NCBI RefSeq assembly: GCF_020630935.1
Contig: NZ_JAHDIG010000008.1
Location: 1 to 64,000, forward strand
DNA: 64,000 bases
Direction of reading: 5' to 3'
DNA from: Bernardetia sp.
GTDB taxonomy: Bacteria; Bacteroidota; Bacteroidia; Cytophagales; Bernardetiaceae
The translations under genes and the position numbers were made by a program. Numbering within the stretch: the stretch's first letter is position 1; the number at the start of each line of letters is the position of its first letter. The notes beneath the pieces are model-generated. The model was not told where the DNA came from and made no database searches. It saw only the letters and a list, made by a program, of their open reading frames with translations. Of this stretch, positions 9,915 through 56,955 are shown piece by piece.

Positions 9915-9975
9915 AACCGTCGTTGAGGCTCAAAACACAACTATCAACGAGGAAAGGCTATCCTAAACGACGGTT
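9915..9975. repeat. intergenic hairpin repeat related to the CGTTGTTGG family
   Basis: AACCGTCGTT at 9915-9924 pairs perfectly with AACGACGGTT at 9966-9975. Inside, CGTTG (9921-9925) can also pair with CAACG further in. It sits between two convergent genes. The arms resemble the CCGTTGTTGG module found in other gaps of the window. Confidence 0.6.
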
Positions 9976-20584: not shown

Positions 20585-20649
20585 AGCCAAGGCAAACCTT
20601 GGCTCTACAAAAAAACATTCTTGCCGTTATTGGTTTCTCCACCAACAAC
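20585..20649. repeat. modular intergenic repeat: AAGG-type hairpin plus CGTTGTTGGT-type hairpin
   Basis: An 8-bp stem AGCCAAGG/CCTTGGCT with a CAAA loop (20585-20604) is followed after 21 nt by the arms GTTATTGGT (20626-20634) and ACCAACAAC (20641-20649). The same two-part order recurs at 23364-23426. It lies between two minus-strand genes, downstream of the TonB receptor. Confidence 0.75.
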
Positions 20650-20653
20650 AGTC

Positions 20654-23161
20654 CTAAAACTCCAAAATAAATCCAATCGTAGGCAAAACACTAGGCTCAT
20701 CATCTTCTAAGAAAGTCGGGATGGCGTTTGAACCGTCGTTTCTTATAGGTTGTCCGTCGGTGGTTTGAAAACCCGAATTATCTGCCGTTCTAGCAAAGGT
20801 ATAGCGTGGAAACTGTGGCGAAGTTTGTACAAAAGCATTCTGAACATCAAAATAAAGGTCTAACGTAATTTTTTTGAAATTGATTTTTTTGTCTATTCTA
20901 AAATCAAACTGACTGAAATTACCTAAGCGTTCGGAGTTTAGGCGAGAATTATCCAAAACACCTGTTCCGATACTCAAATAATTTCTTCTTGATTCTAACA
21001 AATCAAAAGGTGTGTAAGGTGCACCTGCTGCAAAACGGTATTTCAAACCCATTTCCCAACCTCTGCCAAATTTTCTTCCTAAAATGGCTGAAATCAAATG
21101 TCCGTTGTCCCACGCTGAAGCGATGAGTTCTCCGTCTGAACCTGAAAATTCACTTCTAACAAAGGTATAAGAAAATACTGCAAAAATTTTACTGATAAGT
21201 TTTTGTTGGAATAAAAATTCTACTCCATAAGCTCTTCCTTCTCCAATACTGGCAACTTCTTCATTTCCGATTGAGCCAAAATTTCCTCCTTGATTAGCAA
21301 GTGAAATTCCATCACGCACCGAAACAGGGTAGTTGGCATAGCTTTTATAAAAGCCTTCTAAGGTAAAACGTGTACTTGTTCGTGGTATAAATTCTGTTCC
21401 TAAAACGTAGTGTGTAGAAGAAATATATTTGTTGGATTTATTGACAAATTCGCCTGCTTTATTCTGAAAACCCAACACTGTATAAATCGGAAGTTTGAAA
21501 TAACGCCCTACCGAACCATTTATAGACCACTCATCATTGAGATAATACGAAGCTGAAAGACGTGGAGAAAGTGTTTCGAAAGGATTATTTCCTGTTTCTG
21601 TAAACGTATTCATATCTGTACGAACGCCGAAAGAAAGTCCTAATTTGTTATTCAAAACTGTCTTTGAAACTTGTCCAAAAGCTCCATATCTAAAGAAATC
21701 AATGGCAGAGTTATAGTTGATAGTTACCTCTGGTTGAATGATATTTCCTGTCGAATCTCTCAATTCTTTTCTGATTCTACTAAAAATATCATTGTTAAAC
21801 TTTACATACTGTCCTACCAAACCGTAAGCGTATTTCCAACCATTTTTATTTTTATTTACATCAATTCTTAGCTTGTTTTCTATTTCTTGTGATTCTAAAA
21901 GCAATGTTCTGAACTCTTCAGTTTCTTGTTTGTCTTCAAATTGGTCTAAACGATTATCAAACATATTTCTACTGAGTGCTACATTTACATATCCATCTTT
22001 TACTAATCTTTTGAGCGCAAAACCAGTCGTATAATTCCACTGATTGATACTTGGATTGGAACGTAAAATATACTCTGTTTCTGGTGTAGATTCTTTAGGA
22101 GCTTCAAAAGTAAATTCATCTATTGCACCTACTCCAATGGCTGTAAGCGTTGTTTTTTCGTTGAATTTATGCGTTACTTTATATTGAAAATCCCAGTAAT
22201 TGGGACGGATAGGCAAATCCAAAACAGAAAATAAAAATTGCAAGTACGAACGACGAGCCGAAAAAAGTGCTGTCGTATTTTTTCCTAGTGGAGTTTCAAA
22301 AGTAGTGGCAAGTTCTGTTCCTGAAAGACGAACATTTCCTTGAAAACGCTCCGAATTTCCCTCTTTTTGTTTGAAGGTAAAGACAGAAGCAAGTGCATTA
22401 TCGTAACGAGCCTCAAAAGCTGAAGTACTAAGGGTTACATCTTCAATAAAAGAAACATTCAAAATTCCTGTTGGTCCTCCTGCGCTTCCCTGTGTAGCAA
22501 AATGATTGATAACTGGAATTTCGATACCATCTAAATAATAAACATTTTCATTTGGCGCACCTCCACGAATAATAATATCGTTGCGAAAGCCTCCCACAGA
22601 GCCACTCGTTGTTCCCACCCCTGGGAGAGCTTGAACTACACGAGAAATGTCAAAATTTCCACCGGGATTACTTTTTATTTCTTCTGTCGTTAGTCTCTGT
22701 GTAGAAAGAGGACTTTCAACCGTCGTAGGAGAAGCAGACGTTTCTTTTCTTGCTACAATTTCGACACCTTCCAAATTAGATGCTGATTCGGCAAGTTCAA
22801 AATTCAAATTATTAGCATTTCCTGTATTTACAACAATATTAAATTTTGTAAGAGGTGCAAAACCGACATAAGAGGCTTGAATATTATAACTTCCTACTGG
22901 AATTTCTAGTTTATAATTTCCTTCCAAATCTGTAACCACACCAATAATGGGGTCACTTTCCAAAACGATGACCGAAACGCCAATCAGAGGCTCTTGTGTG
23001 TCTTTATCTCTGACAGTTCCTTGTACAATTCCTTTATTTACAGCTTTTTCTGTTTTAGTAGATTCTTCTTCTATATTTTGATTAGTATCTTGTGCCAAAA
23101 CAGGAAAAGAAAAAACAAACCATAAAAATAAAAACAGGTAGTTAAACGGTAAAATTTTCAT
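20654..23161 (-). CDS. TonB-dependent outer membrane receptor
   Basis: An 835-residue outer membrane transporter. The signal peptide (1-23) is followed by a carboxypeptidase-regulatory-like domain (about 45-130: GTVRDKDTQEPLIGVSVIV) typical of Bacteroidota receptors, a plug domain (about 140-260, with PGVGTTSGSVGGFRND and IIRGGAPNENVYYLDGIE) and a 22-strand beta-barrel ending in GFILEF with a terminal Phe. It imports a ligand with energy from TonB. There is no SusD partner, so it is not a classical glycan uptake pair; the substrate (siderophore, vitamin or peptide) cannot be read from sequence. It is divergent from the MarR-exosortase pair. Confidence 0.93.
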   Translation of the reverse strand: MKILPFNYLFLFLWFVFSFPVLAQDTNQNIEEESTKTEKAVNKGIVQGTVRDKDTQEPLIGVSVIVLESDPIIGVVTDLEGNYKLEIPVGSYNIQASYVGFAPLTKFNIVVNTGNANNLNFELAESASNLEGVEIVARKETSASPTTVESPLSTQRLTTEEIKSNPGGNFDISRVVQALPGVGTTSGSVGGFRNDIIIRGGAPNENVYYLDGIEIPVINHFATQGSAGGPTGILNVSFIEDVTLSTSAFEARYDNALASVFTFKQKEGNSERFQGNVRLSGTELATTFETPLGKNTTALFSARRSYLQFLFSVLDLPIRPNYWDFQYKVTHKFNEKTTLTAIGVGAIDEFTFEAPKESTPETEYILRSNPSINQWNYTTGFALKRLVKDGYVNVALSRNMFDNRLDQFEDKQETEEFRTLLLESQEIENKLRIDVNKNKNGWKYAYGLVGQYVKFNNDIFSRIRKELRDSTGNIIQPEVTINYNSAIDFFRYGAFGQVSKTVLNNKLGLSFGVRTDMNTFTETGNNPFETLSPRLSASYYLNDEWSINGSVGRYFKLPIYTVLGFQNKAGEFVNKSNKYISSTHYVLGTEFIPRTSTRFTLEGFYKSYANYPVSVRDGISLANQGGNFGSIGNEEVASIGEGRAYGVEFLFQQKLISKIFAVFSYTFVRSEFSGSDGELIASAWDNGHLISAILGRKFGRGWEMGLKYRFAAGAPYTPFDLLESRRNYLSIGTGVLDNSRLNSERLGNFSQFDFRIDKKINFKKITLDLYFDVQNAFVQTSPQFPRYTFARTADNSGFQTTDGQPIRNDGSNAIPTFLEDDEPSVLPTIGFILEF

Positions 23162-23363
23162 TTGAGATATTTTTTAGGTGAATAAATTAAGTATGTTTTC
23201 GTATTAAAAATAAAATTTCAATAATTTTTTATGTGTTTAATGTTGGTTAAACAGAAATTATTTTAGATTGTTTGGACTAAATCACACTTTTTTATTAAAT
23301 TTCATAAAAAACATTTTCAAATTTAGTACGTTATAGTTTTAAATCAAAACTAATATATTTTGT

Positions 23364-23426
23364 CAAAGGCAAGCCTTTGCCCTAAAATTTTGTAACAACA
23401 GCCGTTGTCGGTGTCTCCACCGACGA
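23364..23426. repeat. modular intergenic repeat just upstream of the MarR-type gene
   Basis: CAAAGGC/GCCTTTG (23364-23379, two-nt loop) is followed after 24 nt by GTCGGTG/CACCGAC (23407-23424). The second stem differs from its relatives by TTGG to TCGG on one side and CCAA to CCGA on the other, so pairing is kept. It ends 17 bp before the ATG at 23443, so it may lie in that gene's 5' untranslated region. Confidence 0.75.
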
Positions 23427-23442
23427 TACACCTCCCAAAAAA

Positions 23443-24099
23443 ATGAACTACGATATTTTACACCAGCTTATAGATAAAGCTCAAGAATATGAGAACCAAA
23501 CAGGGCAGAAATTGGAAAAAGATGATTTGGCTGAATTTTCTGCATGGTTATATGAAAAAACAAATGCAGAAGAAGTAGAAAAACAAAGACAGGCTATCAA
23601 ACTAGAACCTACAGGTGAAACATTAGATAGTCTTATTGGAAAGTTTATTGGCTACATGTATCGTTTTGCTAAGTTTTATGTAAAAAAAGCCTTAGAAAAC
23701 AGTCCTCTGACTACCTTAGATGATTTTACCTATTTGGGAAGCATTATGCTAAAGGCTGGAAGTACCAAAACAGAAATCATAGACTATCATATCCACGAAA
23801 AAACAACAGGCATAGAAATTTTGAAACGCTTGAAAAAAAATGGTTTTATTACAGAAAAAAAATCAGAAACTGATGGGCGTAGCAAGGCTTTATTTGTTAC
23901 AAAAGCAGGACAAGGAGTATTTTTTGCGCACGTAGAGCGAATGCAGAAAATAGGAGAACTTATTGTGGGAGATTTAGAAGAAAATGAAAAACTACAACTC
24001 GTTTCACTTCTGAATCGTTTGAATGATTTTCACCAGCCTATCTATCATGAGAATAAAAAAGAAAATATTGAAAGGCTTTTTAGTTTTAGGAAACAGTAA
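23443..24099 (+). CDS. MarR-type winged-helix transcriptional regulator
   Basis: A 218-residue regulator. Residues about 85-200 have the MarR order: LTTLDDFTYLGSIM, then KTEIIDYHIHEKTTGIEILKRLKKNGFI (recognition helix) and the wing KSETDGRSKALFVTKAG. An extra 80 N-terminal residues are helical. Its stop codon shares one base with the next start (TAATG), so it is translationally coupled to the exosortase gene and may control it. The ligand is unknown. Confidence 0.8.
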   Translation: MNYDILHQLIDKAQEYENQTGQKLEKDDLAEFSAWLYEKTNAEEVEKQRQAIKLEPTGETLDSLIGKFIGYMYRFAKFYVKKALENSPLTTLDDFTYLGSIMLKAGSTKTEIIDYHIHEKTTGIEILKRLKKNGFITEKKSETDGRSKALFVTKAGQGVFFAHVERMQKIGELIVGDLEENEKLQLVSLLNRLNDFHQPIYHENKKENIERLFSFRKQ

Positions 24100-25680: not shown

Positions 25681-25754
25681 GAATGGTTAGAAATAAGCTG
25701 CTCAGAACAACCATTCTACATTACCTTACCGTTGTTGAAGTATTCCTACCAACG
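25681..25754. repeat. two-hairpin repeat: GAATGGTT stem plus CGTTGTTG stem
   Basis: GAATGGTT (25681-25688) pairs with AACCATTC (25709-25716), followed by TACATT. Thirteen bases on, CGTTG (25730-25734) pairs with CAACG (25750-25754). This is the same variable-plus-constant order seen at 20585 and 23364. Confidence 0.65.
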
Positions 25755-25848
25755 ACATCTTTTTCATCGCTTTTGTTTGCAAAAACTCTCGTTTTTGTAC
25801 CTCCTTCGTATTGCCTTTTGTTAGAAACAGCCTAAAAATATAGAAATC

Positions 25849-27180: not shown

Positions 27181-27244
27181 CTAATTTATACAAAGCTATT
27201 TAACTTATCAGTGTTACTAAATACCAATTACAGTATTCTTAGCC

Positions 27245-27266
27245 GTTGTTGGTGTTTTACCAATAC
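27245..27266. repeat. short CGTTGTTGGT-type hairpin
   Basis: GCCGTTGTTGGT runs into TTGGT/ACCAA (27249-27253 with 27259-27263). It is a solo copy of the constant module, between two convergent genes. Confidence 0.55.
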
Positions 27267-27274
27267 ATGAAATC

Positions 27275-35931: not shown

Positions 35932-36780
35932 ATGAAAATCAATAATTTAAACAAAATTAATTTTGACGAATTGATAGAATGCTTTTTACTTTCTTTTGAA
36001 AATTATTTTGTCAAAATGCCTACAGATGCAGAATATTACAAGCGACGATGGCAAACGGCAAAAGTAGATTATCGCCTTTCTTATGGAATGTTTGATAATA
36101 ATAAATTAGTTGGTTTTATAATTCACGCCATTGACAAACGAGATGGAAAGTTAGTTGCTTATAATACAGGAACAGGTGTAATTCCTTCTCATAGAGGACA
36201 AAAAATAGTACATTCTATTTATGAATATGCTATTTCTGATTTAAGAAAAAATGGAGTAGAAAAATGTATTTTGGAAGTCATCACAGAAAATACAAAAGCC
36301 ATAAAAGCCTACCAAACTGTTGGTTTTGAAATAACAAAATGCTACAAATGCTTTGCAGGAGAAACAAACTTTGAAAATCAAATAATAGATAAAACCAAAA
36401 CACATATTAAGAAAGTAAATTATTCGGATATAAACTGGTTAGAAATGCCGAATCAAAATAACTATTCTTGGGACAATCATTTCAAAACTATCAAGAACGG
36501 AGACTATGACTATTATCAAATTTGGAATGAGAAAAATTTAGAATCTTTTTTTATTATCAACCCTAAAAATGGGTATATCGCACAATTTGATATTTTAATA
36601 GATGAAGAAACATATAAAAATCTAGCCTATCAAAGGCTATTTTCTGCCATAAAGAAAATTTCGCCCTTCATCAAGGTCAATAATATTGACACAAAATTTG
36701 AAGACAAAATTAACTTTCTTAGTTCAATGGGCATTAAGAATAACATAGACCAATATGAAATGGAAATGAATTTATATTAA
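35932..36780 (+). CDS. GNAT family N-acetyltransferase with a second C-terminal domain
   Basis: A 282-residue protein. The N-terminal GNAT domain (about 5-145) has the acetyl-CoA loop region GVIPSHRGQKIVHSIYEYA and the late strand-helix KCILEVITENTKAIKAYQTVGFEI. The C-terminal 130 residues look like a second, degenerate GNAT-like unit (AYQRLFSAIKKI). The acyl acceptor is unknown. It is divergent from the radical SAM gene (94 bp) and is followed by a gap with hairpin repeats. Confidence 0.82.
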   Translation: MKINNLNKINFDELIECFLLSFENYFVKMPTDAEYYKRRWQTAKVDYRLSYGMFDNNKLVGFIIHAIDKRDGKLVAYNTGTGVIPSHRGQKIVHSIYEYAISDLRKNGVEKCILEVITENTKAIKAYQTVGFEITKCYKCFAGETNFENQIIDKTKTHIKKVNYSDINWLEMPNQNNYSWDNHFKTIKNGDYDYYQIWNEKNLESFFIINPKNGYIAQFDILIDEETYKNLAYQRLFSAIKKISPFIKVNNIDTKFEDKINFLSSMGIKNNIDQYEMEMNLY

Positions 36781-36810
36781 AACTTAGAATACTGAACATG
36801 AGATAAAAAG

Positions 36811-36877
36811 TTGTTGGTGTCACTACACTAAAATACCAACGAACGTTACTTTTCCCTGTTCTGTGACTCACAGAACA
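36811..36877. repeat. modular intergenic repeat: CGTTGTTGGT hairpin plus TTCTGTG hairpin
   Basis: GTTGGT (36813-36818) pairs with ACCAAC (36835-36840). After 16 nt TGTTCTGTG (36857-36865) pairs perfectly with CACAGAACA (36869-36877). The whole unit recurs, inverted, at 45467-45526, with the spacer motif CCAACGA and the preceding CCC also shared. Confidence 0.75.
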
Positions 36878-37007
36878 ACAATATCTATTGATGTCCAGTA
36901 CTCTAATTAAAACTATTTTATATCCTTTTCTAAGAGTTTCATAAATATGAATTATGTAAAAATAATTGGACTTTATTTTGCAACTATTGAATTAGTTGCT
37001 ACTCCAA

Positions 37008-45466: not shown

Positions 45467-45526
45467 CTGTTCTGTGAGCCACAGAACAGGGATAAATATT
45501 TATCGTTGGTAAAAACATCAACAACG
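45467..45526. repeat. modular intergenic repeat, inverted copy of 36811-36877
   Basis: CTGTTCTGTG (45467-45476) pairs perfectly with CACAGAACAG (45480-45489). CGTTG (45504-45508) then pairs with CAACG (45522-45526). Read on the minus strand the order and spacing match the copy at 36811-36877. Confidence 0.75.
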
Positions 45527-45537
45527 AATTTATTTCA

Positions 45538-55290: not shown

Positions 55291-56091
55291 TTACTGTATT
55301 GCAGGAAAAGGCGTATTTATAATCCTTAAATCGGTAGGTAATTTTGAAATAAACTCACTCCATTCTGGAATGGTATCTCTATGAATAGTCGCAAAGTAAT
55401 TTTCTTTTCTAACTCTAGTTTTTATTCTTATTTGCAACTGACAATAAAGGGCATCTATATTTGTATTAGGATGATAAATAATATGATATTTAAACTCTGT
55501 TATTCTTGCAAAATCAAAAAATTCTCTTAGCTCTTTTGTTTTATTATTCTCTATTGCTAATCCTCTTAATTTATAGTCTATATAAATAGAAAATTTTGAC
55601 TGCATATTTTCCATTTCTTTAATGGATTTATTTTTTGTTTTTGCTGGTAAAATAGACTTTATTCCATACGTCAAACAAGAACCAAAAAGAATAAAAAATG
55701 CCATCCATCCCACAATTTCATTAGATTCTTCGCCTATTATAAGACTAAAAATAATGGAAATAAACCCTCCAAATATAGAAAAGACACACCCTACATTATT
55801 ACTCATAAACATAGGACTATCAGCAAACCCAAAACTTAGCACTTCTTGTGTGTACTTATTATTTGCTTTTAGATAAAGTGTTTGGGGAAGAGGCAAAAAC
55901 TTGAGTGTTTCAGTTTGGTCGCAATGCGAATGTCCTAAATACTCCCAACTTTCAATAAAAAAAGCAGACTTACAAGCAGCACAAACTACGACCGTATGCC
56001 CTTCTTCTATTTTTTCTCCTGTAATGGGGTCAATTCGATTTTGATTTAAAAAGTCTTGATGATTCGCTGTAAGCTGATGAGAGTGGAACAT
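55291..56091 (-). CDS. zinc-ribbon/RING-like membrane protein, tandem copy 2
   Basis: A 266-residue protein. The N-terminal part (about 18-62) has ITGEKIEEGHTVVVCAACK ... ESWEYLGHSHC, a treble-clef pattern with C37, C40, H54/H56 and C57 as likely zinc ligands; the usual first Cys pair of prokaryotic RING domains is replaced by DPITGE. Two membrane helices follow (about 100-150), then a soluble domain with KYHIIYHPNTN and TIHRDTIPEWSEFI. Its first 96 residues are almost the same as those of the upstream gene, while the membrane part is unrelated. Role unknown. Confidence 0.68.
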   Translation of the reverse strand: MFHSHQLTANHQDFLNQNRIDPITGEKIEEGHTVVVCAACKSAFFIESWEYLGHSHCDQTETLKFLPLPQTLYLKANNKYTQEVLSFGFADSPMFMSNNVGCVFSIFGGFISIIFSLIIGEESNEIVGWMAFFILFGSCLTYGIKSILPAKTKNKSIKEMENMQSKFSIYIDYKLRGLAIENNKTKELREFFDFARITEFKYHIIYHPNTNIDALYCQLQIRIKTRVRKENYFATIHRDTIPEWSEFISKLPTDLRIINTPFPAIQ

Positions 56092-56142
56092 TATTTCTTA
56101 TGTGCAAAGTAAATATAAGATATTGTTTTTTGTAAAAAGTCG

Positions 56143-56955
56143 TTACTGTTGAAAAGGTGTATTGATAATTCTTAAATCAGTAGGTAATTTTGAAATAAAC
56201 TCACTCCATTCTGGAATAGTATCTCTGTGGATAGTAGCAAAGTAAGTTGTGGAAAACTGCTGTCTCATTGTTATTCTTATTTGTAATTGACAGTAAAGCG
56301 CACCTAGTTCTGTGTTTGGATGATAAATAATGTGGTATTTAAACTCTATCATATCTTCAAAAGCAAAAAAATATCGTAATACTTTTGTTTTATTACTTTG
56401 CACTTCTAAACCTCTTGATTTGTAATCTATAAATAAATTTAAACTGGCTTCTAGGTTTTCCATTTCTGTGATAGATTTATCTTCTATATTTTTTGGTGTT
56501 GCTCCTGCATCTACAATAAATCCACTAATAAGACTCAATACGATACCTACTATAAAAATAGAAAAGCCTACACCTCCGCTAAAAACATTCCCTATAACAA
56601 TAGCAAATATAAAAGATACAATACTTAAGAGAAAAGATATTAAACAGCCAGAATTATCATCATTTCCCATAAACATATGACTATCAGCAAACCCAAAACT
56701 TAGCACTTCTTGTGTGTACTTATCATTTGCTTTTAGATAAAGTGTTTGGGGAAGAGGTAAAAACTTGAGAGTTTCGGTTTGGTCGCAATGCGAATGTCCT
56801 AAATACTCCCAACTTTCAATAAAAAAAGCTGATTTACAAGCAGCACAAACTACAACTGTATGCCCCTCTTCTATTTTTTCTCCTGTAATGGGGTCAGTTC
56901 GATTTTGATTGAGGAAATCTTGATGGTTCGATGTAAGTTGGTGTGAATGGAGCAT
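56143..56955 (-). CDS. zinc-ribbon/RING-like membrane protein, tandem copy 1
   Basis: A 270-residue paralog of the next gene (51 bp apart, same strand). Only about five differences occur in residues 1-96, including the Cys/His site, and the last 45 residues are likewise close (FATIHRDTIPEWSEFISKLP), but the membrane helices (about 102-150) are different. The pattern points to tandem duplication with later exchange or correction at the ends. Role unknown. Confidence 0.68.
   Translation of the reverse strand: MLHSHQLTSNHQDFLNQNRTDPITGEKIEEGHTVVVCAACKSAFFIESWEYLGHSHCDQTETLKFLPLPQTLYLKANDKYTQEVLSFGFADSHMFMGNDDNSGCLISFLLSIVSFIFAIVIGNVFSGGVGFSIFIVGIVLSLISGFIVDAGATPKNIEDKSITEMENLEASLNLFIDYKSRGLEVQSNKTKVLRYFFAFEDMIEFKYHIIYHPNTELGALYCQLQIRITMRQQFSTTYFATIHRDTIPEWSEFISKLPTDLRIINTPFQQ

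What the first reader, a model, noticed from the sequence alone, without database searches (positions are those of the whole stretch)
36811..36877. Dispersed modular two-hairpin repeat (variable hairpin plus constant CGTTGTTGGT hairpin)
Four intergenic sites pair a conserved stem of the form CGTTGTTGGT/ACCAACRACG with a second, different stem at 13-25 nt: 20585-20649, 23364-23426, 25681-25754 and 36811-36877. The last recurs inverted at 45467-45526, including CCAACGA and CCC in the spacer. Solo or degenerate copies lie at 9915 and 27245. They occur in convergent, divergent and tandem gaps, so they are not simply terminators. This looks like a REP/BIME-like family, possibly mobilised in trans or acting in RNA.
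Basis: seen in the sequence. Interest (0 to 1): 0.75.

Follow-up and report, generated by a model that had tools for sequence, protein, structure and literature searches.

The report
REP hairpins packed in mini transposon
The flagged repeat is a 121-bp miniature transposon with insertion-sequence ends that carries two small hairpins, each of a kind that also flanks its own transposase gene elsewhere in the genome, so it is a real family of genomic parasites of a known sort combined in an unusual way.

Summary
The repeat is real and genome-wide. The window belongs to the genus of Bernardetia MAG-102. Three layers were separated.

(1) An "alpha" REP-like palindrome, GCCGTTGTTGGTG-loop-CACCAACRAC: at least 89 scored copies in this genome, 82-123 in each of six congeners. 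It is intergenic and flanks RAYT genes (HuH tyrosine transposases matching subclass 2.6 / Bertels group 5) across Bacteroidota and Ignavibacteria. Window 20623-20651 and 23401-23429 are plain alpha copies.

(2) The flagged site is more: a 121-bp MITE (36785-36905) with terminal inverted repeats (consensus TAGAGTACTGGACAT) and a 9-bp target duplication. Its ends match a 1,208-bp IS4-like insertion sequence found in three congeners. Inside lie one alpha and one "beta" hairpin (TGTTCTGTG/CACAGAACA).

(3) Beta flanks a second RAYT paralogue, seen in the genus only in this genome and G004, the two genomes seen to carry the alpha-beta MITE.

The partner stems at 20585, 23364 and 25681 are not parts of one shared unit, and 9915 belongs to a third hairpin family. 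Actual movement by either transposase is inferred, not shown.

The parts
36785..36905 (+). MITE, 121 bp, carrying an alpha and a beta hairpin; core of the finding
   Evidence: About 40 aligned relatives at 86-100% identity in own genome; terminal repeats and 9-bp duplication; single-strand DNA fold z -3.9
36785..36799 (+). left terminal inverted repeat TAGAATACTGAACAT
   Evidence: consensus TAGAGTACTGGACAT, 165 genome hits at up to 2 mismatches against 27 for the reversed control
36891..36905 (-). right terminal inverted repeat ATGTCCAGTACTCTA
36776..36784 (.). 9-bp target duplication, left copy ATTAAAACT, overlapping the end of the upstream gene (stop codon at 36778-36780)
36906..36914 (.). 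9-bp target duplication, right copy ATTAAAACT
36810..36842 (+). alpha REP hairpin, long-loop type, inside the MITE
   Evidence: same hairpin type flanks RAYT1
36856..36878 (+). beta hairpin CTGTTCTGTGACTCACAGAACAA inside the MITE
   Evidence: 98 sites in own genome, control 0; flanks RAYT2
20623..20651 (+). plain alpha REP, short-loop type, just past the end of the minus-strand gene 20654-23161
   Evidence: 40.5 bits (this copy is in the model)
23401..23429 (+). plain alpha REP, short-loop type, with a paired T-A to C-G change; about 14 nt before the ATG at 23443
   Evidence: 39.6 bits (close variants are in the model)
25728..25758 (+). degenerate alpha hairpin
   Evidence: 17.4 bits, E 0.008
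27242..27268 (+). truncated or decayed alpha hairpin
   Evidence: 12.3 bits, E 0.27; exact GCCGTTGTTGGTGT half
45467..45489 (+). beta hairpin of a divergent alpha-beta pair without recognisable terminal repeats
45500..45528 (-). alpha hairpin of the same divergent pair
   Evidence: 15.4 bits, E 0.032
9915..9952 (+). copy of a third dispersed hairpin repeat (gamma), not alpha
   Evidence: five matching loci in own genome and G006; a similar hairpin flanks a RAYT in G003

Best explanation
Two kinds of mobile repeat are nested here. Alpha is a REP-like palindrome about 27-39 nt long with a GG(C) extension at one foot. It is most likely recognised as single-stranded DNA by a resident RAYT (a HuH single-tyrosine transposase matching subclass 2.6 / group 5) and was spread between genes by it. 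The flagged unit 36785-36905 is a MITE: an internally deleted relative of a 1.2-kb IS4-like element whose ends now enclose an alpha hairpin and a beta hairpin, beta being the probable REP of a second RAYT. Shown: the MITE, its terminal repeats and 9-bp duplications; the matching IS in congeners; RAYT genes flanked by alpha or by beta; other species whose MITEs with the same ends carry a different hairpin pair. Inferred: that the IS4-like transposase moved the MITE in trans by the double-strand DDE route; that the RAYTs moved the single hairpins; that the hairpin pairs were captured by the MITE rather than the reverse.
For: Genome-wide family and full extent with terminal repeats. 9-bp duplication: mean flank identity 0.856 at exactly 9 bp, against 0.395 (max 0.459) for shuffled flank pairs; 36 of 61 exact, none exact at 10. 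Parental IS: 1,208 bp, TIR TACAGTACTGGACAT, 9-bp duplications at L215 and L197, DDE_Tnp_1 domain, best NCBIfam model IS4 (127.8 bits, below its 152 cut-off); in G001 (2 copies), G002 (5 intact genes found) and G003 (1). RAYT1 flanked both sides by alpha in own genome, G006 and G001; RAYT2 flanked by beta in own genome and G004. About 20 of the RAYT genes scanned from Bacteroidota and Ignavibacteria have an alpha-like hairpin upstream on + and downstream on - (counted by hand). RAYT profile finds only PDB 4ER8, TnpA-REP, and the predicted fold has 4ER8 (RAYT bound to a REP hairpin) as top hit, E 7.6e-8. RAYT-clade genomes carry alpha: 13/16 against 7/43, p 6.7e-6; 7/10 against 6/42, p 0.001 without the genus. 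Covariation above all slid controls. Intergenic: alpha 27/30 against 18% of random points, MITE 28/28 against 22%. MITEs of G001 and G006 enclose an inverted alpha-alpha pair, those of G002 another hairpin pair.
Against: No movement was observed. The IS4-like transposase was not found in this draft genome or in G004, the two MITE-rich genomes, so it may be lost, collapsed in assembly, or replaced. Some genomes have alpha hairpins but no close RAYT (G009, G046; G005 only a broken one), so the link is not strict. Most short-loop alpha copies here are single, not REPIN doublets. Own RAYT1 matches Pfam Y1_Tnp (22 of 23 bits) and NCBIfam REP_Tyr_transpos (76.1 of 80 bits) just below cut-off. The RAYT/REP genome comparison ignores shared ancestry.
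Confidence: 0.85

Rival explanations
1. The whole family, including the 36811 site, is an ordinary REP/REPIN (BIME) set spread only by RAYTs, and the outer inverted repeats are just part of the REPIN.
For: RAYTs with cognate hairpins exist; alpha occurs mostly without terminal repeats; alpha-beta pairs without terminal repeats occur (window 45467-45528; L266, L275).
Against: 36785-36905 and its relatives have ends matching a DDE insertion sequence and precise 9-bp duplications. IS200-like HuH transposition is not known to make target duplications (general knowledge).
Confidence: 0.1
2. The hairpins are functional RNA or DNA elements (transcription terminators, mRNA stabilisers, protein sites) kept by selection, and their mobility is incidental.
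For: Strongly intergenic placement; fold z-scores down to -3.9; 20623-20651 lies between a stop codon and a likely terminator.
Against: Copies lie in tandem, convergent and divergent gaps; lineage-restricted amplification; presence inside a MITE and beside RAYTs.
Confidence: 0.15
3. The unit is a plain IS-derived MITE whose inner hairpins have nothing to do with RAYTs.
For: Terminal repeats, duplications and parental IS.
Against: Both inner hairpins also occur outside the MITE and flank RAYT genes; inner hairpins differ between species while the ends stay.
Confidence: 0.08

Closest known systems
RAYT subclass 2.6 / Bertels group 5 with its 'atypical' REP-like structures (PMC6006769)
   Same: About 179 aa, NHIH, W, YIHxNP and SS motifs; Bacteroidetes; gene flanked by hairpins lacking GT[AG]G, with further copies in the genome
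   Different: The stem, the GG foot, the genus-wide copy numbers and the second paralogue with its own hairpin are described here; these sequences were not in the text read
REPIN / BIME (PMC3116915)
   Same: Short extragenic palindromes, some in inverted pairs, each type tied to a RAYT
   Different: Mostly singlets here; the flagged pair is made of two different REP types inside insertion-sequence ends
IS4-family-derived MITE
   Same: Matching ends, 9-bp duplication, no transposase gene, about 120 bp
   Different: Inner part is REP hairpins that change between species
REP dimers inside longer palindromes, e.g. Anabaena GTAG-15 (PMC3733652)
   Same: REP pair enclosed by an outer inverted repeat
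   Different: No transposase or target duplication for the outer repeat is given in the passage read; the REP tags are GTAG or CGTC
IS110 elements that insert into REPs (PMC1525189; bridge RNA, PMC11208160)
   Same: In G002 and G039 an IS110 sits exactly at the hairpin foot
   Different: Only a bystander that uses alpha as its target, not part of the family

Membership tests
REP (repetitive extragenic palindrome) | 20-40 nt palindrome in high copy, mainly intergenic | tested here: met
   at least 89 scored copies in own genome; 27/30 intergenic
REP (repetitive extragenic palindrome) | 5' GTAG (or CGTC) tag at the hairpin foot | tested here: not met
   Conserved foot is GGC / GCC; lack of GT[AG]G is stated for subclass 2.6 structures in PMC6006769
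REP (repetitive extragenic palindrome) | same hairpin flanks a RAYT gene | tested here: met
RAYT subclass 2.6 / group 5 | HuH, W and YIH[QN]NP motifs, about 179 aa, SS motif | tested here: met
   NHIH, WQ or WE, YIH[ANHQE]NP, 171-193 aa, YSSA; the position after YIH is A in RAYT1, outside the published [QN]
RAYT subclass 2.6 / group 5 | placement in the published tree | not tested
   reference sequences were not at hand
RAYT subclass 2.6 / group 5 | fold of TnpA-REP | tested here: met
   4ER8 top hit by sequence profile and by fold
REPIN | two REPs of one type in inverted orientation as the replicating unit | tested here: inconclusive
   4 of about 29 short-loop loci are inverted doublets; G001/G006 MITEs hold alpha-alpha pairs
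IS4-derived MITE | terminal inverted repeats matching an autonomous element | tested here: met
   14 of 15 bases of the consensus, at the ends of the 1,208-bp IS in G001-G003
IS4-derived MITE | target duplication of the same length as the IS | tested here: met
   9 bp in both
IS4-derived MITE | transposase of the IS4 family | tested here: inconclusive
   DDE_Tnp_1 over cut-off; best NCBIfam model IS4 but under its cut-off
IS4-derived MITE | mobilised in trans | not testable with these tools
   no transposase found in the own draft genome

The most novel reading that the evidence does not exclude
A MITE lineage in Bernardetia repeatedly captures pairs of REP hairpins that match the RAYTs resident in each species, so one small unit can be moved by two unrelated chemistries: double-strand DDE transposition through its ends and single-strand HuH transposition through its hairpins.
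Probability: 0.25. Interest if true: 0.7.

Novelty: new variant of a known kind. Interest (0 to 1): 0.45.

Why it matters
REPs and MITEs are usually treated as separate kinds of miniature element moved by different enzymes. Here one unit combines insertion-sequence ends with two REP types, each matched to its own RAYT, in a group (subclass 2.6) whose hairpins the literature calls atypical. The alpha hairpin found beside these RAYTs across the phylum gives a concrete substrate to test what this RAYT group recognises, and the pairing of two hairpins with two paralogues in two species gives a built-in specificity test.

Tried and rejected
Y1_Tnp family search of own genome: two IS200-like genes (subclass 1.2-like by motif) with their own different hairpins were set aside; the relevant RAYT1 scored just below cut-off. 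Contig ends at C103, C82 and C28 first looked like the parental IS of the MITE; they are an IS110 inserted into alpha hairpins. L104 was a chance hit. A first mixed alignment (A1) misplaced the two loop types and was replaced by A2. CGTC-type REP membership (PMC3733652) was considered: foot and stem do not fit. The partner stems at 20585, 23364 and 25681 were considered as parts of one module and rejected. No literature on Bernardetia repeats was found.

Full report
Check of the observation. The pattern of the alpha hairpin with a long loop has 28 exact matches in the own genome and none for the reversed control; the short-loop form has 45 at up to 3 mismatches and none for the control. A covariance model made from 24 genome copies ranks the window sites: 20623 and 23401 high (they or close variants are in the model), 25728, 36811 and 45500 modest, 27242 marginal, 9919 at chance. 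So two sites are plain family members, three are decayed or variant, one is marginal, and 9915 is not alpha. It is a copy of a third repeat, AACCGTCGTTGAGG..TCAACGAGG, seen in five other loci.

What the flagged site is. Searching the own genome with 70 bases around 36811 gave about 40 near full-length matches at 86-100% identity. Reading them with flanks shows terminal inverted repeats TAGAGTACTGGACAT / ATGTCCAGTACTCTA. In the window the unit is 36785-36905, with ATTAAAACT duplicated at 36776-36784 and 36906-36914. Over 61 paired ends (a few of them mispaired neighbours), flank identity peaks sharply at 9 bp: 0.856 against 0.395 in shuffles, 36 exact, none exact at 10. This is a MITE.

Its parent. 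A scan of 59 genomes for the terminal repeat found pairs spanning 1,208 bp, TACAGTACTGGACAT, in three congeners. These carry a DDE transposase (PF01609; nearest NCBIfam model IS4, below cut-off) and 9-bp duplications. The transposase was not detected in the own genome or in G004, the two MITE-rich genomes; both are drafts.

Its cargo. Inside the window MITE are an alpha hairpin and a beta hairpin, CTGTTCTGTGANTCACAGAACAG. Beta has 98 sites in the own genome, control 0, some without terminal repeats. MITEs with the same ends enclose an inverted alpha-alpha pair in G001 and G006 and another hairpin pair in G002. The ends stay while the hairpin pair changes.

RAYTs. A 179-aa HuH protein at G000:C28:168-704 (RAYT1) has alpha hairpins on both sides, as do its 84%-identical relatives in G006 and G001. 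G006 corresponds to Bernardetia sp. MAG-102 by coordinates and sequence, which names the genus. A second paralogue, RAYT2, at G000:C34 and G004:C65, is flanked instead by beta; in the own genome the downstream copy is shortened. In named genomes from Cytophagales, Chitinophagaceae, Mucilaginibacter, Runella and Ignavibacteria, relatives of RAYT1 have alpha-like hairpins, upstream on + and downstream on -; other members have other stems. The protein profile finds only PDB 4ER8 and the predicted fold (pLDDT 88.5) matches it best. Motifs and length fit subclass 2.6 / group 5, described as flanked by atypical structures in Bacteroidetes (PMC6006769).

Distribution. Presence of the RAYT clade (E up to about 1e-35) and of alpha (4 or more hits) go together: 13/16 against 7/43, p 6.7e-6; without the genus p 0.001 (the classes were set by hand). 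There are exceptions in both directions, and species are not independent, so the p values are only a guide.

Structure. Over 24 copies the stem has 95.4% standard pairs and three pairs with changes on both sides, above all slid controls; the evidence is modest since copies are similar. A T-G wobble in one strand is a C-A mismatch in the other, so the two strands are not equal as single-strand substrates.

Mechanism. Shown: the MITE anatomy, its parent in congeners, the hairpin types and their RAYT neighbours. Inferred: movement of the MITE in trans by the IS transposase, RAYT movement of plain hairpins, and capture of hairpins by the MITE. The order of events was not established; insertion of REPs into an empty MITE and internal deletion of the IS followed by capture are both possible. 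The left ends of the IS and of the G004 MITE agree beyond the terminal repeat (GGACATGAGTTAAA), which favours descent from the IS.

A third mobile element uses alpha as a target. In G002 (L111) an IS110-family element lies exactly between CACCAAC and AACGGC of an alpha hairpin, in G039 (L105) at the matching place, and three own contigs end at the same junction (IS110 over cut-off). The non-coding part before the transposase gene repeats the target sequence AACACCAACA, as expected if a bridge RNA chooses the site; that is inference.

Limits. 

Noticed in passing
L111 (G002) 1500-2850; L105 (G039) 1530-2830; own contig ends C103, C82, C28: IS110-family element inserted exactly at the foot of alpha hairpins; its non-coding leader holds copies of the target sequence (AACACCAACA), suggesting a bridge-RNA guide for REP targeting.
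   Followed up: partly
window 9915-9952; L012, L020, L041, L068, L109: Third dispersed hairpin repeat AACCGTCGTTGAGGCTCAAA..TCAACGAGG; a similar hairpin flanks a RAYT in G003 (L282).
   Followed up: partly
window 23363-23380; L084, L101, L102, L247: Recurring hairpin AAAGGCAAGCCTTT, another possible dispersed palindrome (one copy next to an IS200-like gene, L084).
   Followed up: partly
L071 1209-1519 (own contig C17): A MITE copy interrupted by a second small element with ends TAACGTRAACTYGG; similar ends also seen in L110 (G003).
   Followed up: no
L083, L084 (own C6:10641, C3:90091): Two IS200-like genes flanked by their own different palindromes (ACACCTACGGTGT; GTTGCTCTGCAAC).
   Followed up: no
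L193, L213 (G001, about 84.6 and 97 kb): The two IS copies appear to have swapped flanks: the left flank of one (ATTCCCAAA) matches the right flank of the other, which suggests an inversion between them.
   Followed up: no
window 55291-56955: Two adjacent ORFs are tandem paralogues sharing stretches at 74-91% identity.
   Followed up: no
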